From positions 1 through 50,013 of the forward strand of contig JALTZZ010000081.1 in NCBI GenBank assembly GCA_027051165.1: a DNA stretch of 50,013 nucleotides. Reading direction: 5' to 3'. Positions 34,788 to 49,832 of the stretch are shown here, piece by piece. Under the pieces are notes generated by a model. That model had not been told where the DNA came from. It made no database searches and was given only the letters and a program-made list of their open reading frames with translations. The first letter of the stretch is position 1. Each line of letters starts with the position of its first letter. The stretch comes from an archaeon. Its GTDB lineage: Archaea; Hydrothermarchaeota; Hydrothermarchaeia; JALTZZ01. A program made the translations under genes and the position numbers.

Positions 34788-35135
34788 TTGAATGTTAACA
34801 AAAAGATTTATTTTGTGAACGATTTAAAAGAAATAGTATTGCTCTTAAGAAAAATCCTTGATGTGCTCGAAAGAATTGAAAAGAAGATCAGTAAAAATGA
34901 TAAAAAGGAAGAGATAAGTATAAATCCTCTTATTTTATTGGAGCTTCCAGATAACCTTAGAGAAACTATTATGGCTCTTATAAAGCTCAAAAAAGCGACC
35001 GCAAGTGATGTGGCAAAAATTACCGGGAGGGGTAGGGCTATCGAAAGTCACTACCTAAACACTCTCGTAAAGATGGGGTATGTGAGGAAGAGGAGGGAGG
35101 GAAGGAGGGTAATATATGAAGTTCTTGAGAAGTGA
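34788..35135 (+). CDS. Winged-helix transcriptional regulator
   Basis: 115 residues. An N-terminal heptad helix (EIVLLLRKILDVLERIEKKI) probably dimerises. The C-terminal winged helix is ETIMALIKLKKATASDVAK, ITGRGRAIESHYLNTLVKMG, YVRKRREGRRVIYEVLEK, with recognition helix and wing evident. The start is TTG 34,788, close to a predicted transcript start. GTG 34,815 is also possible. It overlaps the MFS gene by 20 bases, so it likely controls this operon. Confidence 0.7.
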   Translation: MNVNKKIYFVNDLKEIVLLLRKILDVLERIEKKISKNDKKEEISINPLILLELPDNLRETIMALIKLKKATASDVAKITGRGRAIESHYLNTLVKMGYVRKRREGRRVIYEVLEK

Positions 35136-36177
35136 TGTCACAGCATTCATTCTCCTATTCTCGTATGGTTGTTTTTTGCTATCCTTTCCAAATTTTGGTC
35201 CGATTTCTCTCAAAATTATTGAAGCAAATGAAATAAATCCTTATGCTTTTTTTTCGCTGTTCTACATTTTTCATATAGCCGGAATAATATTCTCTGCTGT
35301 ATTGCTTGATGGAATAAAAGAAAGAATAAAATTAATAAAAATTATCGTTATGCTTCTTATCTTATCATCTTTCCTCATTTTAAAAGTTTACTATATAATC
35401 TCCCTAATAGGGTTCCTTATGGGCGTAGTCGTTGTGAGCATGGGAAGTTTTTTAGCAAGGTTCGTAGAGCCTTGGAAGAGAGGAAAGATTTTCGCCCTCG
35501 CAGCTTCTTTGGCAAATATATATCTCTACTGCTTCTTTATCCGTGGATCTTTCGAAAGCATTAAGCTCCTAATTTCACTGTCGCTGGCACCCTTTTTTCT
35601 TATATTCCTTTTATCAAATGTAAGCTTTGAGATAAAGGCTTCCCGGATAAATAGAAATTTCGCTTATTTTTCAATTCCAGTTTTTGTCTTCTATCTGCTT
35701 GGAGGAATTATGTATGGTGCCATGGAACCTGTTTTTAGGAGAGAAGGTATAAGCGTTCACGTCCTATTCTATGCCGCTGCTATTGTTCTTGCCGGATATT
35801 TATACGATGCTATAGGAAGAAGAATAGTTTCTATTTTCGGCTTGCTGACTCTATCGCTCTCTTTTCTTATGTTTCCAGAGAATCTCTCCCTCTCTGCATA
35901 CCTAATTCAGCTCTCCTATGCATTTATAGATGTATTTGCAATGTTGATATGGGCTGACATAAGCAACTTTGGAAGCGAGGCAAGACAATACGGCATTGGA
36001 ATGCTCTTTATAACCCTACCTATATTCTTGGGCTTTACAATTACGCAGTTCTTTACTTTTCAAATAAATACCATACTTGCCGTTTCTCTTTTAATAATTT
36101 CTGCATTTTTAATAGGAACAACAAAAGAACCTTTAATATCACCTAAGGATTATATAAGATGGATAAGCAGAAGATGA
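35116..36177 (+). CDS. Major facilitator superfamily-like transporter
   Basis: 353 residues with 10-12 hydrophobic helices in two halves. RFVEPWKRGKIFALAASLA resembles the MFS loop between helices 4 and 5, and GYLYDAIGRRIVSIFGLL matches the equivalent loop at helices 8 and 9 (the D-x-x-GRR motif). It is shorter than the usual 400 residues. The substrate is unknown. ATG 35,116 has GGAGGGTAATAT before it. The gene is coupled to the upstream regulator and sits nine bases before a MinD-like ATPase. Confidence 0.7.
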   Translation: MKFLRSDVTAFILLFSYGCFLLSFPNFGPISLKIIEANEINPYAFFSLFYIFHIAGIIFSAVLLDGIKERIKLIKIIVMLLILSSFLILKVYYIISLIGFLMGVVVVSMGSFLARFVEPWKRGKIFALAASLANIYLYCFFIRGSFESIKLLISLSLAPFFLIFLLSNVSFEIKASRINRNFAYFSIPVFVFYLLGGIMYGAMEPVFRREGISVHVLFYAAAIVLAGYLYDAIGRRIVSIFGLLTLSLSFLMFPENLSLSAYLIQLSYAFIDVFAMLIWADISNFGSEARQYGIGMLFITLPIFLGFTITQFFTFQINTILAVSLLIISAFLIGTTKEPLISPKDYIRWISRR

Positions 36178-36186
36178 GGTGTTCAA

Positions 36187-36882
36187 ATGATAGTAGGCTT
36201 GCACTCGTTTAAGGGCGGTAGTGGCAAAACGTTTATAGCATTAAACCTTGGTCATCTAATTTCAAGCAAGAAGAAGGTTTGCTTAATCGAGATGGATCTC
36301 AGAGCACCAAGCTTCCATACGTTTTTTAAGTGCAAAAGATACATAAACGATCTCCTCAGAAAAAAAGATGATGTCAGAAAATACTTGGTGGAGGTTAAAA
36401 GAAATCTGTTCATAATTCCTGCTTCTCCAATGTTAAGGGATATAAGAGGAGATATTATAAGAAGGGATTCCGAAAGTATAAGAATACTGAAGAGACTTGT
36501 GGATATCGTTTCGGAGATTAAATCCCTCGGCTTCGATTATGTATTCATAGATAACCCTCCGGGACTGAGCTATACGAGCATAAATTCGATGATAGTAAGC
36601 GATGTTATTATCCTTGTTTCAAGACCAGAGAAGGCAGAGATCAAGGGGCTTGAGCTTCTTCTTGAGATATCTGAAAATGTCGAAAAACCCAAGTATATAG
36701 TTTTAAATAGGGTTGCTAAAGATATCAGCATAAATTTGCCTGTTGTTGCAAAAATACCGTGTAGCTGCGATGTTAACATGGATTATCCGTTTTTTGTTGA
36801 GCTAAACAAAGATCATAAAGTAACAAAGGCTCTGAAGGAGCTTTCAGAGTTCATATTAAAGTTAAATTTAACCTCCTTGTAG
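36187..36882 (+). CDS. MinD/ParA-family ATPase
   Basis: 231 residues. The deviant Walker A FKGGSGKTFIALNLG near residue 8 (KGGxGKT), EMDLRAPSFHTFF (switch I region), and FDYVFIDNPPGLSYTSI (Walker B, DxPPG) place it among the MinD/ParA proteins, which switch between monomer and dimer with ATP. A C-terminal cysteine pattern like that of Mrp/NBP35 is absent. A single Cys pair-like IPCSCDVN occurs. Following a regulator and a transporter, it may position or regulate that transporter (inference). No parS or ParB gene is seen. Confidence 0.8.
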   Translation: MIVGLHSFKGGSGKTFIALNLGHLISSKKKVCLIEMDLRAPSFHTFFKCKRYINDLLRKKDDVRKYLVEVKRNLFIIPASPMLRDIRGDIIRRDSESIRILKRLVDIVSEIKSLGFDYVFIDNPPGLSYTSINSMIVSDVIILVSRPEKAEIKGLELLLEISENVEKPKYIVLNRVAKDISINLPVVAKIPCSCDVNMDYPFFVELNKDHKVTKALKELSEFILKLNLTSL

Positions 36883-39547: not shown

Positions 39548-39715
39548 ACCTCCTCCCCGCCCTAAAGGGCTTATGGGAAGGTTTGTGCTTCTAAGGACTT
39601 TCCTGACTACATCGGCTCTCTACCTCAGCCCTTAGAAGCACAGCTTGGCAAAGACCCCCTTAAACCCTCGTTCTCTGCAAGGAGAAGAGGGTTATCTATT
39701 TATAACTACCAAACA
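39548..39715 (-). ncRNA. Orphan IS200/IS605-type structured end (omega-RNA-like), no tnpB
   Basis: Read on the minus strand there are three successive stems. CCCTC...GAGGG near 39,690-39,664 is the first. GTGCTTCTAAGG pairs with CCTTAGAAGCAC (12 bp) over 39,643-39,585, and GCCC-TTTA-GGGC lies at 39,570-39,559. The sequence then ends GGGGAGGAGGTCA. A GCCC-GGGC hairpin followed by a G-rich GAGGTCA end resembles the right end of archaeal IS605-family elements, which encodes the 3' part of the TnpB guide RNA. A TATA-like ATTTATATAG near 39,727 could drive it. No TnpB or TnpA coding is visible in 39,470-40,018, and the rest of that gap shows no gene. Confidence 0.45.
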
Positions 39716-39943: not shown

Positions 39944-39981
39944 TAGTTTTATTGTTGAACACCGAAACGCTTTTATATATC
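39944..39981 (+). promoter_or_regulatory. Promoter block of the lipoprotein gene (shared motif, copy 1)
   Basis: TAGTTTTATTGTT, a variable triplet, CACCGAAACGC (BRE-like) and TTTTATATATC (TATA). Thirty-four of 38 bases match the block at 41,711-41,748. GGAGG at 40,005-40,009 is the ribosome site for ATG 40,019. Confidence 0.65.
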
Positions 39982-40018
39982 CTGAACTACAGATAATAAT
40001 GGAATGGAGGTTTAAACT

Positions 40019-41668
40019 ATGGCGTGTCTGTTGAGAATTGCGGCTCTGTTCTTATTAATATCATTGCTGATGGGTTGCTCCCAAGGAGAGAAAGAAGTGG
40101 GTGAAAAAGGTGCAAAGGAGTTTTCTACACCAAAAATCGGGTCAAAAGATTATTCTCTACAAAAACCTGAGGGATACTATGAAATAGTTGATAAAGTTCA
40201 TGGTATAAAATTCTATCTACCAGAGGGATGGATATACAGAGTAGACGAAGGTGTTGCATCGTTCTATGAACCTTCATATTCTAAAGGTATTATAATTATA
40301 CCTTTATCAGATGCCACCAAAGGTGTTGAAGAAATATTAAAACATTTTAATAAAAAAACAGCCTATGTAAAGGGTGATAAAAAGAGCATCTCTGTATCAT
40401 TTGAGGCTGATCTTTCTTCAGTGGTTTCCCTTACAATGCCGGGTAGAGCTGGTGAACTTATTGAGCTCAGAAGTCCCAAAGAGGTTAGGGTAGTTTTATC
40501 TGCCTTCAAGGATAAAAAAGCTGGTGTTGCATACGTATTCTTTTTCGATGGGAGCAAAATTCCAGAGGAGCTCAAAACTATTGCAAAGAGTTTGAGGTTT
40601 ATTAAGGAGAGGGAGGAGCTTTCAGAAGTAGATGTTGGAAACTTTGCCACTGCAAAGCTTCCAAAGGGATATACAGCTGAAGGAAGGAGTGTTCAATCAC
40701 GCAGCTGTCCCGGCTACTATTCTGGAATTTATGGGAAAATAAAAGGAGAGCGTGGTGGAAGCTACGAGATTATATATGCTGAATACAGCTATGCATTTTA
40801 TACGAGCCTTGATCTTGGATATCCATGGCTTGAGGAATATTTCAAGCAGCAAAGAGGGTGTCTCTACGAATACATAGATTTAGAATCCTTCCAGACCGTT
40901 GTTGGAAAAGGAAACATTGATATGTGCTATAAGAGCATAGAAGAATATACAGAAAGCTTAATATCCCTCTTTAAGGAGAAGTATCCGGATATACATGTAA
41001 AAAGTCTTGATATCGTTTTCAAAAATGTCAACGTTCCAGAGAATCTGAATTCCAAGCTTTATATTCTCACATCGGATACAAATCCTATGTTTATAGCTTA
41101 CGTCGTTGTTCAGGGTCTTGAGATGGAAAGCAGCATGCCCACACCATATGGATCGCTTGGAATGAAAATGATCGGCGGCAACGTGCTGATAAATACAATA
41201 GATGCGAAATCACCGGAAGAATTTTCCGTATTTATGAACGTAAAGGACACCATTAAGCTTAAAGACGAATGGCTCGAGAGAAACATGAAAGCTGCAAGAG
41301 AATGCTACGAATACTATATGAGAGAGGCAAGGAGGGAGATACAGCACAGCAGAGAGATAACAAACATGATAACTGAGACTATGAGAGAAATATCTGCTAT
41401 GCACTGGGATTCTTGGGAGAAGGAGAGAGAGTTTCAGGAAAGAATGGCAGAATCCGTGACGAGGATACTGAGCGACTACACCGCTCTGAGGGATCCAGAA
41501 ACAAATGAGATTTACGAGGTTGAGAGCTTTGCCCAGAGATACTGGATAAACGACGAAGGGCATATTCTCGGCACGGACTGGGATGTTTCTGAGAGCGATC
41601 TCTTAGCCGAGGGATGGAGACCTCTCGAAGAGAATCCAGCTGGATTTGTCAGAGATATGTGGGGGTGA
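40019..41668 (+). CDS. Secreted lipoprotein of unknown function
   Basis: 549 residues. The signal peptide ends in LLMGCS, a lipobox whose Cys20 would be lipidated. Residues about 45-200 hold a strand-rich domain (HGIKFYLPEGWIYRVDEG... IAKSLRFIKE) of the type seen in PsbP-like or DUF1795-like exported proteins. The middle contains cysteines (SRSCPGYY, QRGCLYEY, DMCYKS). The C-terminal quarter is a long charged helix (REARREIQHSREITNM, WEKEREFQERMAESVTRIL) followed by DPETNEIYEVESFAQRYWIN. I do not recognise the function. It has its own promoter and shares an upstream motif with the following surface operon. Confidence 0.75.
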   Translation: MACLLRIAALFLLISLLMGCSQGEKEVGEKGAKEFSTPKIGSKDYSLQKPEGYYEIVDKVHGIKFYLPEGWIYRVDEGVASFYEPSYSKGIIIIPLSDATKGVEEILKHFNKKTAYVKGDKKSISVSFEADLSSVVSLTMPGRAGELIELRSPKEVRVVLSAFKDKKAGVAYVFFFDGSKIPEELKTIAKSLRFIKEREELSEVDVGNFATAKLPKGYTAEGRSVQSRSCPGYYSGIYGKIKGERGGSYEIIYAEYSYAFYTSLDLGYPWLEEYFKQQRGCLYEYIDLESFQTVVGKGNIDMCYKSIEEYTESLISLFKEKYPDIHVKSLDIVFKNVNVPENLNSKLYILTSDTNPMFIAYVVVQGLEMESSMPTPYGSLGMKMIGGNVLINTIDAKSPEEFSVFMNVKDTIKLKDEWLERNMKAARECYEYYMREARREIQHSREITNMITETMREISAMHWDSWEKEREFQERMAESVTRILSDYTALRDPETNEIYEVESFAQRYWINDEGHILGTDWDVSESDLLAEGWRPLEENPAGFVRDMWG

Positions 41669-41710: not shown

Positions 41711-41748
41711 TAGTTTTATTGTTAATCACCAAAACACTTTTATATATC
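41711..41748 (+). promoter_or_regulatory. Promoter block of the membrane/giant protein operon (shared motif, copy 2)
   Basis: The block differs from 39,944-39,981 at four positions only. It again has TAGTTTTATTGTT, CACCAAAACAC and TTTTATATATC. Transcription should start near 41,770, leaving a leader of about 100 bases that includes the long hairpin. Confidence 0.65.
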
Positions 41749-41787
41749 AAATTATCAAAATTTAATTATATCATGGTATAAGGCTGA

Positions 41788-41862
41788 ACCTCAAAGACTG
41801 CAGAAGAAGGATGTGAGCAGCTTTGCCTGCTGCTTGCTCCTTCTTCTGCAGGTTTTGGAGGT
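41788..41862 (+). promoter_or_regulatory. Leader hairpin that pairs with the Shine-Dalgarno of the 41,869 gene
   Basis: CTGCAGAAGAAGGA (41,798-41,811) pairs perfectly with TCCTTCTTCTGCAG (41,838-41,851). Inside it AGCAGC and GCTGCT form a second stem. Outside it ACCTC (41,788-41,792) pairs with GAGGT of the ribosome site GGAGGT (41,857-41,862), with AAA/TTT pairing between. When folded, the ribosome site for GTG 41,869 is buried in a stem of over 20 pairs. Confidence 0.7.
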
Positions 41863-41868
41863 TTGGCT

Positions 41869-42456
41869 GTGGGATCTGAATCAGGGAGTGGAGAAGGGAA
41901 TAAAAATAAAAATAATAAAGATAATGAAAATAAAAAAGATAATAAAAACGCAAAAATAATGAAAATAATAATATTGCTGATAGTGCTCTCAATAGCTTCA
42001 GCGGTTCTTATGATATTTAATAAACATGCGTTATCCATGGCTCTCTTTTTCTCAGCAATATTTCTTTTAGTCCTATACATAATGGATGCCATGACAAAAA
42101 AAGCGAGAGAAGATTTTATTAAAAATAAGAATATTGTAGAGGAGCTTAAGAGCATTTCCGAAAAGCTTGATAAAAAGGTGGATGAAGATACTATAAGAAG
42201 ACTTAATTTAATTCTCCTCTACTTGGAGGATTCCTTAGATACCTTCAGCAAGAGGGAGATAAGAAGGGCTTTAGCCTTTTCCATAACAATGTTCTATTTT
42301 ACCGTAATTTCTTTAGCTATTTTTGGAAACGTCCCTGATACCGTTGTATCAAACGTTTCGCTCGTATTTCTCGTTGTGATTGCATTTTACTTCGGCTCTC
42401 GTGCCGTTGAGGATGGAATAAAACTTTATAAAGCGTTGAGGGGTGGTGGGAGATGA
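41869..42456 (+). CDS. Small membrane protein with low-complexity Asn/Lys N-terminus
   Basis: About 195 residues. An N-terminal low-complexity stretch (SGSGEGNKNKNNKDNENKKD) leads to two hydrophobic helices (IIILLIVLSIASAVLMIF and SMALFFSAIFLLVLYIMD). A soluble coiled segment follows (FIKNKNIVEELKSISEKLDK), then two more helices (FSITMFYFTVISLAIFG, NVSLVFLVVIAFYFGSR) and a basic tail. I do not recognise the family. GTG 41,869 is chosen over TTG 41,863 because GGAGGT ends six bases before it. It overlaps the giant surface-protein gene by four bases, so the two are translated together, perhaps as a membrane partner of that protein. Confidence 0.65.
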   Translation: MGSESGSGEGNKNKNNKDNENKKDNKNAKIMKIIILLIVLSIASAVLMIFNKHALSMALFFSAIFLLVLYIMDAMTKKAREDFIKNKNIVEELKSISEKLDKKVDEDTIRRLNLILLYLEDSLDTFSKREIRRALAFSITMFYFTVISLAIFGNVPDTVVSNVSLVFLVVIAFYFGSRAVEDGIKLYKALRGGGR

Positions 42457-45400
42457 GGATTTTGATAATTGCTTTAGCGTTTTTAATCGCAGTGCTTAAT
42501 GTTGGTTTTGGAGCAACACAAATAAGTAACTGTTCTGTTATAGATACCCCCGGTGTATACCACCTAACTCAGGACATTGTAGGAAGCGGTGCGGATGTCT
42601 GTATAAAAATCTCTGCAAGCAATGTTACGCTTGATGGAAGAGGTTATAAGATAAACGGGACAGGAAGAATAGCTATACAGATATACAACGGCAGTATCAG
42701 GCTCTCAAACGTGACGATAAGGAACGTTAGCATAGAAGGTTGGGGTAAAGGTATAGAGCTTAAAAACGCTGATAACTGCAGTGTTTATAATGTTGGAATA
42801 GCAAAAATAAGCTACTATGCTGTATATCTTTACGGTTCTGGAAATGTTCTCTACGGAATAAATGCAGTAGATGGCAGAACTGTATATATAGGATCAAACT
42901 ATGATGCAAACAACATAATAAGAAATTCTGTATTTGTGAATACAAGAGTTCTATCTTATAGTAAAAATACTGTTTTTAGTAACATAACCATAAAGAATTT
43001 TGCGGGAACATATTATACATATGCAATGGAAATAAGAGGCTCGAACACGACAATAAAGAACTGCAGTATAACAAACAACTCTGGCTCTGGAATATCTCTT
43101 GCTGCAGAAAATTCAACGATAGAAAGTTGCAATATCAGCTACAACGGTGGAGATGGTGTAAAAATTGGAGATAGCAATAAGATTATAAACAGCACAATAA
43201 GCTACAACAAAGGTTACGGAATTATTCTCTCTGGATCAAAAAACACTCTTAAAGGGAACAAAATCTTTAAGAATAAGTATAATTTTTATGCAACGTGCTA
43301 CTATTATGGCGGCTTTTCTGATCCTATAATAAAATGTAGAAATGATGTAGATACAAGTAACAGTGTGGATGGAAAGCCCATCTATTATTTAATAGGAGTA
43401 GAAAACTATTCCGTGCCAAGAGATGCTGGTGTTGTTTACTGCATAAGCTGCAACAACGTAACTATAAAGGATGTTTATTTGAAAAACAACTACTATGGCT
43501 TGGTTCTTATAAATACGACAAATTCTATAATAAATAATGTTACTGCTGCTGAAAATGTATACGGACTGTTTATTGATTACTCGTTCAACAATACAATAAA
43601 GAATTCAAACTTTTCATTTAACGATGAAAATGGAATCTTGTTTGGCGGGGAAAGGAAATATACGGGCAACTTCTTTGATTATGCAAGCAGAGGCAACGTT
43701 ATAGATAATGTTGTTGTCAAAGGGAACGGAAAAAATGGAATACGTTTCACATTTCAAGGAGACAACATAATAAGGAACGCTGCCGTATTATGGAATTCAA
43801 GAAAAGGAGTCTATTCCGGAATAGATATTGAAGGTTCGGAAAACGTTACTGTTGAAGACAGCTACATATGCGGAAATCCATACGGTATTAAGATCCGCAG
43901 ACATCACCGTTTCTATTTTATAGAATCATTCAACATCACGATAAGGCACAGCAGGATATGCAACAGCTCCTACTACGGTATATATTTTGATCATTCATAC
44001 AATAACTCAGTATATGAGAACGAGATTATTTACAATAAAAGAGGTGTTTATACTCAAAGCGAAAATAAAATCTACAGCAACACTATAAACTTCAGCAACG
44101 TGCATGGAATAGAGATTTCCGGAAGCATGAATAACATATCATACAACAAGCTCTACGGAAACGGTCTTGGTTTTTACTTCTACGGTTTGCCTATGAATCC
44201 CACATCCCTATACAACATCATGCAAAATAATATTGTTGACGGAGATATCTACTATCACTTATTTAACGAAAACGGAACTGTTTTAAGAAATATTGTTTTA
44301 GAGTCGGCAGATAAAGTTAGCAACGCTGGAAAGATAACCATAGTAAACTCAACAAATGTTGTCTTAGAAAATATAACTGTAGCAAATACTACGGAGCAAT
44401 ACTCTGATTCATATGCTGAAGCTGGTATTTATTTATATGAAACGAATGCATCTAAAATAATAAATGTCACGCTGTTCTCTAATGATATAGGCATCTATTT
44501 ATACAGATCATACAACAATATTGTTAGCAATTCGCACATATACAGCAACAAAAAGTTCGGAATATATGCTGAAAAATCCAAAAATATATCTATAATATAC
44601 AGCAATATAAGCTCAAGCGGTAGCGGAATCTTGTTTAGATATTCAGACAACAACACGGTAGCAGAAAACAGTATGAGCAGCAATCGTGCTTGCATATCCC
44701 TATATTATTCAAATAAAAACAGAATTTCCAACAACTTCATGGAATCAAGCGATTATGGAGCTTCTCTCACGTATTCAAACAACAACACTCTTATAAACAA
44801 CAGGATAATTTCCTTTAAAGGCGGAACTTATATTAAAAGCGGAATTCGCATTATCAGAAGCAACTACAACGCTTTAATCGGAAACGCTCTTGCATTTAAC
44901 ACATATGGAATTTATTTAAGCACTTCGAAGGGGAACGTGATAGCAAACAACACTCTTGAATCTAACGGTTATGGAATTTATATTCATTTTTCTAATGATA
45001 ACATGTTGGTCAACAACACTCTAACAAAAAACAACTACGGAATTTATATTTACCGCTCAAGCACCAACGTTTTAAGAAGCAATTTAATGGCTGACAACTA
45101 CAGCTTCTACGTTGAAGGTGGAGAAAAGGTATCAAATTATATTAACGATGTAGATGAAAGCAATAAAATTTATGGAAATCCTATATACTATTTGATAAAC
45201 AGAAGCAACGTTGAAGTTCCCAAGGATGCTGGATGTGTTATACTTATAAACTCTAAAAACATAACCGTTAGGGATGTAAAAATTTCGAATAGTGGAATAG
45301 GCATACTCTTAGTTTCTACAAACGAAACAGAAATCTCAAATATAACGCTTATAAACAACAGTATTGGTTTAAAAATATTGATGTCTTCAAATAACAAAAT

Positions 45401-48400
45401 TTTAAACAACTACATAGCAGAGAATAGTTTCTATGGAATCTACATGTATTATTCCAATTATAATAGAATAGAGAACAACACCCTTCTTAAAAACAACTTT
45501 ATATGTGTTATCTGCGGAGGTTCTGTAATAATTAAATCAAACTACAACACCATAACCAAAAATACGATTGCTGAGTCTGGATGCACGGGCTTATACGTAA
45601 GCTCCTCAAATGCAAACTTAATATATCTAAACAACATCTTTAACACAACATGCTCATTCTGCGGTGCATACTGCAGAGGAAATGGTTACTCCGTAGGATC
45701 TGTGAACACTTGGCACTCTCCAACCATTCTGAAATATGTATATAACGGCTCGGAATTTCTCGGATACCTCGGCAACTACTGGGGAGACTATAGAGGAGTA
45801 GATAGCGATGGAAACGGGGTTGGCGATACACCATATGTTATCAGAACGTTGTTTACACAAGACTACAGTGAGGAAGACTACTATCCTCTTATGAAGCCCT
45901 TTGAAAGCTACTTAGAAATTCCCATATCTACAACATCTAAAGCTGAAGAGGTTGTGTCAAACAAGACTGAAATGCTTGAGAATATTACGGTCTATACAGC
46001 AAACATTGAAACAAAACTGTCTGGAAATTATTCTGGAGAGATGAATTTTACCCAGATAAGGATGATATATATAGCTTCAGGAGAATTTAAAGGCAAAGGA
46101 TTTCTCATAGGAAACTGGTCCTCCGTTCTTGATGGCAGAGAATATACGGGAACTTTGCATGGAATTTTGGTTGAAAAGTTTGAAGAAGGAAGAATATATA
46201 TAAAAGGAGTGCTCGGTGGAGAAGCTGAGGGTATAATTAACGGCTATGTTATAAAAAATTCGAGCAAGTTTTATGCTGAAGCTATTTTAAGCAATGTTGG
46301 AAACAATACGGTGTATGCCAGCGTTTACTTAAACGGAAGCGTGGAGCAAATTTCTGAAGAAAATTTCACATCTAAGCTCTATACGCTGCAGGTTCTGCTT
46401 AAGGGAAGCTTATCTGGACAATACAACGGTTCGATAAACGTCTTTATTACCCACGTAAGGATTGATAATTCAACGAGCCAATATCACGGCAGAGGCATGA
46501 CAATAATTTCCTACTCCTCTGCTTACGGCACAGGCAGTGGCTGGGCGTATTGTGAGATGTCTAAAAACATTACAAATCTTATCGGCTTCTTTAAAAAGCC
46601 CTTGGAAGGCATAATATCCGGCACCTTAGACGAAACTGGTGTCAAGAAAAAGATTTCAATATTTCTGAAGAGAATAGACTTGGGAAGACCACCACTAGCA
46701 GAGATAAATTTAATTCTCTGGGGTCCAATAAGAGTAAGCCCCGGAGAAACCGTTGATTACAACATAGAATATAGAAACGATGGATTAAAGGATGCGGAAA
46801 ACGTTGTTATCGCTGCACAGCTTCCATATCCGGTAGAATACGTTTCAAGCACAAACGGCGGAGTTTATCATGCAAGTCTTCATCAAGTGTTTTGGAAGCT
46901 CGGCACTATCAAGAGCGGAGAAAGGGGAATTCTAAGCTTTAGAGTTAGATACCACTGGGGGCTACGTGCCGGCGAAGTATACGAAATATATCCTCTATTC
47001 GGAACAACGAGTCCAGCATCATATACAACGATCTGCAACATTGATAAATATCTAAAATATAAGCCAACCAAGGTAACATATGCTGAAGTTGTTCCGACAG
47101 AAAATTTGAGCGATGAGCTGAGAATTGAGCTGTCCAACGAGCAAGTATATGAACTATACAACTATTCAAAAGAGCTTGGATATAACTATACAAAGACAAT
47201 AATAAGAATGAGGTTCAGCAACAATGTAACAATTGTTAGGATATTAATGCTTAATGAATCCAACTATCCGTTGCTAATCACAAACTACAACAACAGCGTT
47301 TATTTCATAGAACAGTATTTGAACGACAGCATAAGAATATTTAACAGAAGCGGAGGTATGGTATACTACTTCTTAAACAACTCGTATAGCGGTTGGGGAA
47401 CATGGAACATAACGAGAAGCCCAAGCGTATGGCAGTGCATAGTGAACGGCATTATTCAGAGCGTTCCGTCTTGGGCACTATCCAGAGCTGCAGATCTCCT
47501 AACTGGTGGGGCAAAGATAGCAGTAAAAGTTGCTCTTGCACTTCCTGATTGTGGAGGTTGTATTTCAACGATCTTTGATAAAAAATTACCCATAGATACC
47601 TCATGTGCAAATTGCCTCTCAAACGGCGTGCAAAGCATACCCTTTATTGGTGAAGCTGTTGGTGCAGCTGGAATTGTTGCGGACTGTATAGGAGATCCAG
47701 AGAAATATGCGTGCACACCGGGTTCTACAAAGACTGCTTGTGCAAAGGACTTGGGATTGTATTACAGGCTCTTTGACTTTCCAAATAAGCTTATTATATT
47801 TAAATGCTCATCCTTTGGCTTTTGGAAGAAGTCCGATTATATAATATGTGATGCACCTCCAGAGTTCGGAGGATACGGCTCTGGAACAAAGTGCACAGAT
47901 GGTGCGTGTGTGACAAAAGATAAAATAAGAGGAGCTCACGTATCAAGAATTATTGTTGCTCACGATCCTAATATAAAGTATGGTCCAGAAGGATTCGTTA
48001 AACCCGGGCAGTTGCTGAATTATACGGTAGAATTTGAAAATGAAGGAAATGGTAGTGCTTTTGGAGTTTACTTTGTTGATTTCCTCGATGAAGATTTAAA
48101 CGAGAGCACTCTTGAAATAAGCCCGGTCTATGATAAAAATGGAAGTATAATCGCACCAAAAGGAATATATGATAAGAATACAAGAACAATAACGTGGTTC
48201 GTTGGTAAAGTAGGACCAAAGGAGGGTGGGTATGCAAACATCAGCGTGAGAGTTCGAGAGGATGCTGAAGAGGGAACAGAAATAATAAATTATGCTATTG
48301 TATATTTCCCATCTGTGCCGGAGGAGACAAGAACGAACAGTATAGTGTCCGTTGTGGATATAAACGCTCCAAGATACTACAACGTATCCCAAAACAAGGA

Positions 48401-49832
48401 TCGTGTAAATGTTGGCGATTTTATAACATTGAAAGCTTATTGGAAGGACGGAACGCAACTAAACTGGGCTTGGTTGGAAATTAATGAAAGTGGAAAATGG
48501 GAAAATATAAGCTATGCTAAGCTTTTGAGCTCTGAAGAATGGAGTATTTTTGAGATTAAAGTAAATAAAGAAGGAGATATATGCTGGAGAATATATGTAA
48601 ACGATACCGCTGGAAACGTGAATTCTACAGAAATCTACTGCTTTACCGCAGAAAAAATGGGAGCACCCGCTATAAAGATAATAGTTCCAGCTAACAACAG
48701 CTATATGGAATTTCTTCAGTTATATGTTGTATCAGATAAACCTCTAAGAGAAGCTGTAGCAGAAGTATGGGGACACGAGACAAAAAATATAACTTTGAAG
48801 GGTAACGGAACGAAGTGGTATGGAAACCTTTCGTTAAGCGAGGGAGAATATTTTGTAAGAGTGTGGGGAACAGATTACGAAAACAATACAGGTATAAGCG
48901 ATGTTTATAAATTTACAATAGTATCAATGTATAGAAACATTTCAACGACAATCACCTCAAATGAATCTAAGGTTATCTTAAATACGAGTCATGTGACTAT
49001 AGAAGCGACTGCAACTACCAATACTACGCTAAACATTTCAGTGGTGCTTTCGTATAGACCTTTAACTAAGGAACTTAACAGAACAACAAGCTATGGAAAG
49101 GCTGAAAATGCAGTTAAATATGTAAAAATAGATAGCTTTACTCCTCAGCAAAACATAAGCAGAATAAATGTAACTCTATACTTTGTAAGAAACGAAGTAA
49201 CAAGCTTTGATACAGATACATTAGCGCTTTTCTACTGGAACAATACTGCATGGGTAAGCACGATAGATAGCATAAACAAGACAATACCAGATACCTCAGG
49301 CGGGCTCTATGTATATCATGCTGGTAAGCATTACGATCAAACCACGGGAAAGGGTTATGTATATGCTGTAGTTAACCATACAAGCGTTTTTGCGATAGGT
49401 GGTGAAGTAAAACAAGTTGCCGTAGTGCCAACACCTTCTGCCGGTGGAGAATACTCGCCAGAAGTCGTGATTCTTGCAAACAGCATAGATTTAAGCTTAG
49501 CTAAAGAGCTCGTTGAGAAGCTTAAGAAAAACAGAATAAAGGTCTACATAGCAAATGCAAGCAACTTCAGCGAGTATAAGACGAAACTCTACATAATCGT
49601 TCTTGGCGGACATGAAGCCTACGAAGGTATTGGTGATATTGTTGCAGAGATAACAACATCTGAAGAAAGAGCTAACATAAGTAAAGGAAAAGTATTTATC
49701 AAGAAAAAGTCCGTATTCAGAAGCGGTCAAACAGTCTATATATTCGCGGGTGCCAACAGATTTCTTACCGCTGAAGCTTGGAAGAACAATATTAACAGTG
49801 TTATAAAGGAAATTAAATATAACATAAATTAA
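42453..49832 (+). CDS. Giant secreted right-handed beta-helix surface protein (NosD-like repeats, DUF11 and Ig-like domains)
   Basis: 2459 residues. Signal peptide at 1-21. From about 30 to 1110 there is a long right-handed beta-helix of NosD/PbH1 repeats (recurring N-x-I-x-N and Y-G-I-Y-L turns), closed by NYWGDYRGVDSDGNGVGDTP near 1105. A module with GKPIYYLI and VPRDAG near residue 310 recurs as GNPIYYLI and VPKDAG near 910, so part of the helix is a duplication. Strand repeats follow at 1150-1410, then a DUF11 domain at about 1417-1523, a cysteine-rich insert at 1666-1823, a second DUF11-like domain at 1828-1970, Ig-like domains to 2160, a PGF-pre-PGF-like region to 2320, and a C-terminal unit (VVILANSIDLSLAKELVEKL... 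VLGGHEAYEG) resembling S-layer or cell-wall-binding ends. N-glycosylation sequons are numerous. It is probably a sheath or adhesin. Confidence 0.88.
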   Translation: MRILIIALAFLIAVLNVGFGATQISNCSVIDTPGVYHLTQDIVGSGADVCIKISASNVTLDGRGYKINGTGRIAIQIYNGSIRLSNVTIRNVSIEGWGKGIELKNADNCSVYNVGIAKISYYAVYLYGSGNVLYGINAVDGRTVYIGSNYDANNIIRNSVFVNTRVLSYSKNTVFSNITIKNFAGTYYTYAMEIRGSNTTIKNCSITNNSGSGISLAAENSTIESCNISYNGGDGVKIGDSNKIINSTISYNKGYGIILSGSKNTLKGNKIFKNKYNFYATCYYYGGFSDPIIKCRNDVDTSNSVDGKPIYYLIGVENYSVPRDAGVVYCISCNNVTIKDVYLKNNYYGLVLINTTNSIINNVTAAENVYGLFIDYSFNNTIKNSNFSFNDENGILFGGERKYTGNFFDYASRGNVIDNVVVKGNGKNGIRFTFQGDNIIRNAAVLWNSRKGVYSGIDIEGSENVTVEDSYICGNPYGIKIRRHHRFYFIESFNITIRHSRICNSSYYGIYFDHSYNNSVYENEIIYNKRGVYTQSENKIYSNTINFSNVHGIEISGSMNNISYNKLYGNGLGFYFYGLPMNPTSLYNIMQNNIVDGDIYYHLFNENGTVLRNIVLESADKVSNAGKITIVNSTNVVLENITVANTTEQYSDSYAEAGIYLYETNASKIINVTLFSNDIGIYLYRSYNNIVSNSHIYSNKKFGIYAEKSKNISIIYSNISSSGSGILFRYSDNNTVAENSMSSNRACISLYYSNKNRISNNFMESSDYGASLTYSNNNTLINNRIISFKGGTYIKSGIRIIRSNYNALIGNALAFNTYGIYLSTSKGNVIANNTLESNGYGIYIHFSNDNMLVNNTLTKNNYGIYIYRSSTNVLRSNLMADNYSFYVEGGEKVSNYINDVDESNKIYGNPIYYLINRSNVEVPKDAGCVILINSKNITVRDVKISNSGIGILLVSTNETEISNITLINNSIGLKILMSSNNKILNNYIAENSFYGIYMYYSNYNRIENNTLLKNNFICVICGGSVIIKSNYNTITKNTIAESGCTGLYVSSSNANLIYLNNIFNTTCSFCGAYCRGNGYSVGSVNTWHSPTILKYVYNGSEFLGYLGNYWGDYRGVDSDGNGVGDTPYVIRTLFTQDYSEEDYYPLMKPFESYLEIPISTTSKAEEVVSNKTEMLENITVYTANIETKLSGNYSGEMNFTQIRMIYIASGEFKGKGFLIGNWSSVLDGREYTGTLHGILVEKFEEGRIYIKGVLGGEAEGIINGYVIKNSSKFYAEAILSNVGNNTVYASVYLNGSVEQISEENFTSKLYTLQVLLKGSLSGQYNGSINVFITHVRIDNSTSQYHGRGMTIISYSSAYGTGSGWAYCEMSKNITNLIGFFKKPLEGIISGTLDETGVKKKISIFLKRIDLGRPPLAEINLILWGPIRVSPGETVDYNIEYRNDGLKDAENVVIAAQLPYPVEYVSSTNGGVYHASLHQVFWKLGTIKSGERGILSFRVRYHWGLRAGEVYEIYPLFGTTSPASYTTICNIDKYLKYKPTKVTYAEVVPTENLSDELRIELSNEQVYELYNYSKELGYNYTKTIIRMRFSNNVTIVRILMLNESNYPLLITNYNNSVYFIEQYLNDSIRIFNRSGGMVYYFLNNSYSGWGTWNITRSPSVWQCIVNGIIQSVPSWALSRAADLLTGGAKIAVKVALALPDCGGCISTIFDKKLPIDTSCANCLSNGVQSIPFIGEAVGAAGIVADCIGDPEKYACTPGSTKTACAKDLGLYYRLFDFPNKLIIFKCSSFGFWKKSDYIICDAPPEFGGYGSGTKCTDGACVTKDKIRGAHVSRIIVAHDPNIKYGPEGFVKPGQLLNYTVEFENEGNGSAFGVYFVDFLDEDLNESTLEISPVYDKNGSIIAPKGIYDKNTRTITWFVGKVGPKEGGYANISVRVREDAEEGTEIINYAIVYFPSVPEETRTNSIVSVVDINAPRYYNVSQNKDRVNVGDFITLKAYWKDGTQLNWAWLEINESGKWENISYAKLLSSEEWSIFEIKVNKEGDICWRIYVNDTAGNVNSTEIYCFTAEKMGAPAIKIIVPANNSYMEFLQLYVVSDKPLREAVAEVWGHETKNITLKGNGTKWYGNLSLSEGEYFVRVWGTDYENNTGISDVYKFTIVSMYRNISTTITSNESKVILNTSHVTIEATATTNTTLNISVVLSYRPLTKELNRTTSYGKAENAVKYVKIDSFTPQQNISRINVTLYFVRNEVTSFDTDTLALFYWNNTAWVSTIDSINKTIPDTSGGLYVYHAGKHYDQTTGKGYVYAVVNHTSVFAIGGEVKQVAVVPTPSAGGEYSPEVVILANSIDLSLAKELVEKLKKNRIKVYIANASNFSEYKTKLYIIVLGGHEAYEGIGDIVAEITTSEERANISKGKVFIKKKSVFRSGQTVYIFAGANRFLTAEAWKNNINSVIKEIKYNIN

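What the first reader, a model, noticed from the sequence alone, without database searches (positions are those of the whole stretch)
41711..41871. Long leader hairpin buries the ribosome site of the surface-protein operon
A stem of 14 perfect pairs plus flanking pairs ACCTC/GAGGT hides GGAGGT. Translation of a 195-residue membrane protein and, by overlap, a 2459-residue protein would depend on opening it. The presence of a second inner stem (AGCAGC/GCTGCT) allows alternative folds, as in an RNA switch or thermosensor.
Basis: partly seen in the sequence, partly recalled or inferred. Interest (0 to 1): 0.68.

Follow-up and report, generated by a model that had tools for sequence, protein, structure and literature searches.

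The report
Conserved leader hairpin of archaeal surface-protein mRNAs
In a heat-loving archaeon, messages for several giant cell-surface proteins begin with the same kind of long RNA hairpin right in front of the ribosome-landing site, kept by matching mutations in a relative, which suggests an undescribed RNA control element for the cell coat.

Summary
The hairpin is real and sits where described. It is the strongest leader structure in a 0.81-Mb sample of its genome. The conserved part is the 23-bp core (41798-41851), not the SD-hiding stem. In a sister family (G021) the orthologous operon has a homologous core with 21 of 23 pairs kept, five through compensatory changes, while the SD-hiding outer stem is lost (8/14 pairs). 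A covariance model built without it found a third instance in the window's own genome. That one lies between TATA box and SD of an unrelated giant transglutaminase-domain secreted protein. A 97%-identical paralogous operon carries a fourth. The shared layout is TATA, ~19-32 nt leader, core hairpin, 1-9 nt, SD, start. The same promoter occurs without a hairpin (549-aa gene at 40019) and the hairpin occurs with another promoter, so they are separate modules. There is no Rfam match. Best reading: a new leader RNA element of surface-protein mRNAs in a Hydrothermarchaeota order. In this operon and its copy it has gained an outer stem predicted to close the SD. Thermosensing and an alternative-fold switch are not supported. 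Direct function (translational operator versus mRNA protection) is inferred, not shown.

The parts
41721..41748 (+). Promoter: GTTAATCACCAAAACACTTTTATATATC, upstream element plus TATA box (TTTATATA 41739-41746)
   Evidence: Pattern occurs 3 times in the whole genome: here, 39954 and the C153 copy; 0 in the reversed control. Similar element in relatives G009, G010 and G021 (by eye)
41766..41772 (+). Predicted transcript start (about 41769)
   Evidence: Inferred from the usual 23-nt distance downstream of an archaeal TATA box; not measured
41782..41795 (+). 5' arm of outer stem, contains anti-SD ACCUC 41788-41792
   Evidence: Pairs listed; only 8 of 14 pairs kept in G021
41798..41811 (+). 5' arm of conserved core stem (14 bp)
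   Evidence: kept with compensatory changes in G021 and G000 C39
41813..41821 (+). 5' arm of tip stem (9 bp) of the core
41822..41828 (+). Apical loop, variable in length and sequence between homologs
   Evidence: 7 nt here, 8 nt in G021; in C39 a longer tip stem-loop replaces it
41829..41851 (+). 3' arms of tip stem (41829-41837) and core stem (41838-41851)
41854..41868 (+). 3' arm of outer stem, overlaps the SD
41857..41862 (+). Shine-Dalgarno sequence GGAGGT
   Evidence: 6 nt before GTG 41869; AGAGGT in the second copy
41869..42456 (+). 195-aa small membrane protein, GTG start
   Evidence: paralog lacks the downstream Met near residue 31, supporting an upstream GTG start; Pfam DUF4870 match below cutoff
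42453..49832 (+). 2459-aa secreted beta-helix surface protein
   Evidence: NosD/Beta_helix/DUF11 domains; ATGA overlap with the preceding gene
39954..40018 (+). Same promoter element in front of the 549-aa gene, short leader with no hairpin (internal control)
   Evidence: fold z = -0.42

Best explanation
The hairpin is a structured RNA leader element carried by mRNAs of giant secreted or surface proteins in one Hydrothermarchaeota order. SHOWN by computation: the core hairpin (41798-41851) recurs at four loci in two genomes of different families, in front of different kinds of surface gene, between promoter and SD, with compensatory changes and a bias to G-U over A-C mismatches that points to the sense RNA strand. 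INFERRED: it acts after transcription as a translational operator. A hairpin abutting the SD by 1-9 nt sits where the small ribosomal subunit docks, so a stem-binding regulator could block or help ribosome loading and set surface-protein output jointly. In this operon and its duplicate an added outer stem also pairs the SD, so translation would start low and need the outer stem to be opened; the downstream 2459-aa gene could follow by translational coupling through the ATGA overlap.
For: Strongest leader structures of the sampled genome. Orthologous leader in G021 ranks 1 of 97 and 1 of 76, in G007 joint 1 of 94. Sequence-only alignment G000/G021: 21 of 23 core pairs kept, 5 double changes; with C39 added, 93.6% of cells paired, 8 pairs with double changes, 0 of 500 shuffles as good, slid controls 38-56%. 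Model R1, built without C39, found it at 32.8 bits, E 3e-5 for the whole genome; its sense strand scores 38.3 bits. Similarity beyond pair-preserving shuffles: window vs C39 p <= 0.00025, G021 vs C39 p 0.0015-0.011, window vs G021 p 0.01-0.03. Eight G-U versus one A-C among wobble-type pairs of three divergent copies, p = 0.02. Promoter and hairpin occur separately.
Against: Only four instances, two of them near-identical paralogs, so covariation rests on three divergent sequences. Wider relatives G009 and G010 lack a strong leader hairpin (z -0.97, -0.26); G007 and G008 have strong ones without detectable sequence homology. Transcript starts are predicted only. No regulator, ligand or expression data. 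Sense and antisense similarity are nearly equal because the hairpin is almost palindromic. Ranks use a mechanical gene finder on about a third of the genome.
Confidence: 0.5

Rival explanations
1. mRNA protector: the stable hairpin near the 5' end slows 5'-to-3' decay of very long surface-protein mRNAs, like the ompA 5' stem-loop in E. coli; SD pairing in this copy is incidental.
For: Predicted hairpin starts are 5'-proximal: +13 (outer stem) to +32 from predicted TSS in G000/G021, about +1 in G007 (with TATA rule). Strong leader hairpins without sequence homology in G007 and G008 fit a role needing only stability. Targets are giant surface proteins.
Against: About 66% stem identity is kept between otherwise unrelated loci, more than mere stability needs. 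ompA-type protection is most effective when the hairpin is close to the very 5' end (own knowledge). An SD-hiding outer stem is odd for a high-expression device.
Confidence: 0.25
2. One reading: an SD-sequestering switch or thermosensor specific to this operon; the hidden SD opens with heat or a ligand.
For: Outer 11-bp stem hides the SD and spacer in both copies; SD opening probability rises from 1e-5 at 65 C to 0.1 at 90 C.
Against: Outer stem not conserved in G021 and absent at C39, where the SD is essentially free. No competing fold. No Rfam thermometer or riboswitch match. The two copies are too similar to test the outer stem.
Confidence: 0.15
3. A small mobile hairpin (MITE or REP-like) that happens to lie in leaders, or a DNA dyad acting as a transcription-factor operator downstream of the promoter.
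For: Near-palindrome; homologs align almost equally well in either orientation; the C153 copy lies next to an IS607-like element; surface loci are mosaic.
Against: Only 3 true copies in the genome, all between promoter and SD; compensatory changes and G-U bias; arm spacing varies, unlike a dimer operator.
Confidence: 0.1

Closest known systems
Archaeal L7Ae autoregulatory 5'-leader (PMC6298567)
   Same: Archaeal mRNA leader stem-loop that can occlude the ribosome site; control by an RNA-binding protein
   Different: There the leader is unfolded until L7Ae binds a k-turn; here the hairpin is pre-formed and no k-turn was seen by eye
E. coli ompA 5' stem-loop (mRNA stabiliser; own knowledge, reviewed e.g. 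in PMC7509114)
   Same: Strong 5'-proximal hairpin in the mRNA of an abundant surface protein
   Different: Here the stem sequence is also partly conserved, the hairpin abuts the SD, and this is an archaeon; stability untested
thrS / rpsO-type translational operators (own knowledge)
   Same: Hairpin just upstream of the SD, where a protein competes with or traps the 30S subunit
   Different: No regulator identified; longer near-perfect stem, no tRNA-like mimicry looked for
SD-sequestering RNA thermometers (ROSE, fourU)
   Same: SD paired within a leader hairpin in this copy
   Different: Core is far too stable, SD pairing is perfect rather than U-rich or mismatched, and the SD-hiding part is not conserved
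Archaeal fluoride riboswitch (T. kodakarensis, cited in PMC8241225)
   Same: Archaeal cis-acting leader RNA presumed to control translation
   Different: No aptamer-like fold; no Rfam match; loop hypervariable

Membership tests
RNA thermometer (ROSE/fourU type) | SD paired in the leader | tested here: met
   for this locus and its duplicate only
RNA thermometer (ROSE/fourU type) | Weak or mismatched SD pairing that melts in the physiological range | tested here: inconclusive
   Perfect pairing; computed opening 1e-5 at 65 C, 0.006 at 80 C, 0.1 at 90 C; growth temperature of this organism unknown
RNA thermometer (ROSE/fourU type) | Match to a known family | tested here: not met
   Rfam
Riboswitch | Conserved aptamer with ligand-binding nucleotides and two alternative folds | tested here: not met
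   Single hairpin with hypervariable loop; pair probabilities 0.91-0.97 at 65 C, no competing fold; no Rfam match
L7Ae k-turn leader | k-turn internal loop with tandem sheared G-A pairs | tested here: not met
   Internal loops read by eye are A-G plus G-U, U-U or A-C, without a 3-nt bulge; no k-turn search program was run
ompA-like 5' stabiliser | Stable hairpin close to the mRNA 5' end | tested here: inconclusive
   +13 to +32 from predicted starts; starts not mapped
ompA-like 5' stabiliser | Prolongs mRNA half-life | not testable with these tools
   No expression data
Conserved structured leader RNA | Covariation supporting the stem in independent homologs | tested here: met
   8 pairs with double changes, 0 of 500 shuffles as good; but few sequences
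Conserved structured leader RNA | Recurs before different, functionally related genes | tested here: met
   C39 transglutaminase-domain secreted protein and two beta-helix operons in G000, one beta-helix operon in G021
MITE / REP repeat | Multiple copies at random intergenic places | tested here: not met
   three copies, all leaders; weaker hits are TTATAA arrays

The most novel reading that the evidence does not exclude
A previously undescribed archaeal cis-regulatory RNA family: a stem recognised by a dedicated RNA-binding regulator that coordinates synthesis of giant cell-surface proteins at the ribosome-loading step, in a lineage with no cultured member.
Probability: 0.33. Interest if true: 0.7.

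Novelty: new variant of a known kind. Interest (0 to 1): 0.5.

Why it matters
Very few natural leader-RNA controls are established in archaea, and how archaea coordinate production of their huge surface proteins is largely open. A covarying leader hairpin shared by several surface-protein mRNAs gives a concrete, testable candidate for post-transcriptional control of the cell coat, together with a covariance model to look for more.

Tried and rejected
Small-protein search against named genome contigs found no relative with one protein and two with an alignment. Rfam at permissive E-values gave only miRNA-like chance hits below gathering scores. G007 and G008 leader hairpins were considered homologs: G008 reached 19.3 bits with R1 but neither passes the pair-preserving similarity test nor matches R2, so they count only as strong hairpins in the same position. 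R2 hits at C146 and C162 of G000 (20-30 bits) were rejected as TTATAA-palindrome arrays. An ORF through the hairpin was considered: the frame is open for 25 codons, but no ATG/GTG/TTG lies in frame and chance openness is likely. K-turn/L7Ae rejected on inspection. One fold window for G021 was misplaced and was redone (z -7.9).

Full report
WHAT WAS CHECKED. The window is contig C81 of a 2.38-Mb draft genome. The class searched for relatives holds 23 genomes, and its named members are Hydrothermarchaeota (Ca. Pyrohabitans JdFR-17 and isolate S141_67). The leader at 41782-41868 folds into one long hairpin. It has an outer stem 41782-41795 x 41854-41868, a 14-bp core 41798-41811 x 41838-41851, and a 9-bp tip 41813-41821 x 41829-41837 with a 7-nt loop. 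The energy is -58.9 kcal/mol for 106 nt, z = -8.2. The SD GGAGGT 41857-41862 and the spacer to GTG 41869 lie in the outer stem.

IS IT MORE THAN CHANCE. I fetched 0.81 Mb of the same genome. Among 396 predicted genes with at least 60 nt of upstream non-coding sequence, this leader and its paralog on C153 rank 1 and 2 by 100-nt leader energy (-58.7 and -56.6, median -14.2). They also rank 1 and 2 of 300 by best local 80-nt hairpin. Perfect 14-bp inverted repeats with loops up to 60 nt occur about 11 times per Mb.

THE PROMOTER. GTTnAnCACCnAAACnCTTTTATA occurs three times in the genome: at 41721, at the C153 copy, and at 39954 in front of the 549-aa gene. The reversed control has none. The TATA box predicts a start near 41769, so the hairpin is inside the transcript (inference). 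The 549-aa gene has the same promoter but a short SD leader without a hairpin, so the promoter does not explain the hairpin.

THE SECOND COPY. C153 carries a paralogous operon (small protein 88% identical, 1707-aa beta-helix protein) with a leader 96-97% identical. Its two hairpin changes are not compensatory: A41811 to T breaks one pair, and G41857 to A weakens the SD. It is too recent a copy to test structure.

RELATIVES. A profile of the small membrane protein finds homologs in G007, G010, G021, G008 and G009. G010 and G009 share the upstream MFS-ATPase gene order. In G021, of the same order but a different family, the orthologous operon also has the strongest leader of its sampled genome (1 of 97; 1 of 76). 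A sequence-only alignment from the TATA box onward puts the two hairpins in register. In the core and tip, 21 of 23 pairs are kept, five by double change (UA to CG, GC to AU, GC to AU, AU to UA, CG to UA). In the SD-hiding outer stem only 8 of 14 are kept. The SD (GGTGA) and GTG start of G021 lie 9 nt and 18 nt downstream of the core, and the start region is easy to open (3.6 kcal/mol at 37 C, against 19.0 in the window).

A THIRD LOCUS. A covariance model (R1) from these three sequences, searched against 23 genomes, found a further instance in the window's genome at C39:47705-47778, E 3e-5 for the whole genome. On the sense strand it scores 38.3 bits. It folds to -51.7 kcal/mol, z = -9.4. It lies between a TATA box and GGAGGT/TTG of an unrelated secreted protein of at least 1402 aa with a transglutaminase domain. 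Its promoter lacks the shared upstream element. With it added, 93.6% of cells pair and eight pairs show double changes; none of 500 shuffles does as well, and slid registers give 38-56%. The homologs keep about 66% identity in the stems. Pair-preserving shuffles give p <= 0.00025 for window against C39, 0.0015-0.011 for G021 against C39, and 0.01-0.03 for window against G021. Wobble-type pairs are eight G-U against one A-C, as expected if the sense RNA is what is selected (p = 0.02).

WHERE IT STOPS. In G007 and G008 (another family) the same operon has strong leader hairpins (z -4.95 and -4.46; G007 joint first of 94), but no sequence homology is demonstrable. G009 and G010 have only weak folds. 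The element as a family is therefore shown only within the window's order.

HOW IT MOST LIKELY WORKS. Shown: the layout promoter, short leader, core hairpin, 1-9 nt, SD, start at all four loci, with selection on pairing. Inferred: function after transcription. A stem of conserved sequence and variable loop, set against the SD, fits a translational operator. Protection of long surface-protein mRNAs is the main rival. In this operon the extra outer stem should lower initiation (SD opening costs 7.5 kcal/mol at 65 C), and the ATGA overlap would carry this to the 2459-aa gene. A heat switch is not excluded at 80-90 C but has no positive support. A two-fold switch is not supported, because the tip stem belongs to the same hairpin.

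LITERATURE. The nearest archaeal precedent is the L7Ae leader (PMC6298567), where a protein stabilises a stem-loop that occludes the ribosome site. A 2021 paper names the fluoride riboswitch as the only experimentally determined natural riboswitch in archaea at that date (PMC8241225). Fluids sampled for Hydrothermarchaeota reached 62 C (PMC6775978). My searches of the open-access library found no description of this element; subscription papers were not searchable.

Noticed in passing
42453-49832; L098 (G021 C34:15091-15483): The C-terminal 131 aa of the 2459-aa protein is 95% identical to a surface protein of G021, of another family, but only 75% identical to the genome's own second copy: mosaic exchange of surface-protein ends.
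   Followed up: partly
L016:1600-2431 (C153): An IS607-like pair (104-aa serine recombinase plus truncated TnpB-like ORF) lies inside the remnant of the 549-aa gene next to the second surface operon.
   Followed up: no
L246:1260-1720 and L247:1290-1670 (C146, C162): Arrays of TTATAA-containing palindromes with TCACAGCTGTGA dyads; on C146 next to a sliding-clamp-like gene. Possibly a virus or plasmid replication region.
   Followed up: no
L127, L128 (G007 C6, G008 C27): Other surface genes in relatives have an SD (GGTGA) predicted to pair with TCACC at the start of the coding region; the outer pairs differ between the two species in a matching way.
   Followed up: partly
35116-36882: MFS-type transporter and ParA/MinD-like ATPase genes are syntenic with the surface operon in G009 and G010; in the window about 5 kb (37 to 41.7 kb) with an AAA/OLD-like pair and the 549-aa lipoprotein-like gene lies between.
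   Followed up: no
39584-39642: A further inverted repeat with a 13-bp perfect arm (TGTGCTTCTAAGG, arms 33-34 nt apart) in the gap before the 549-aa gene.
   Followed up: no
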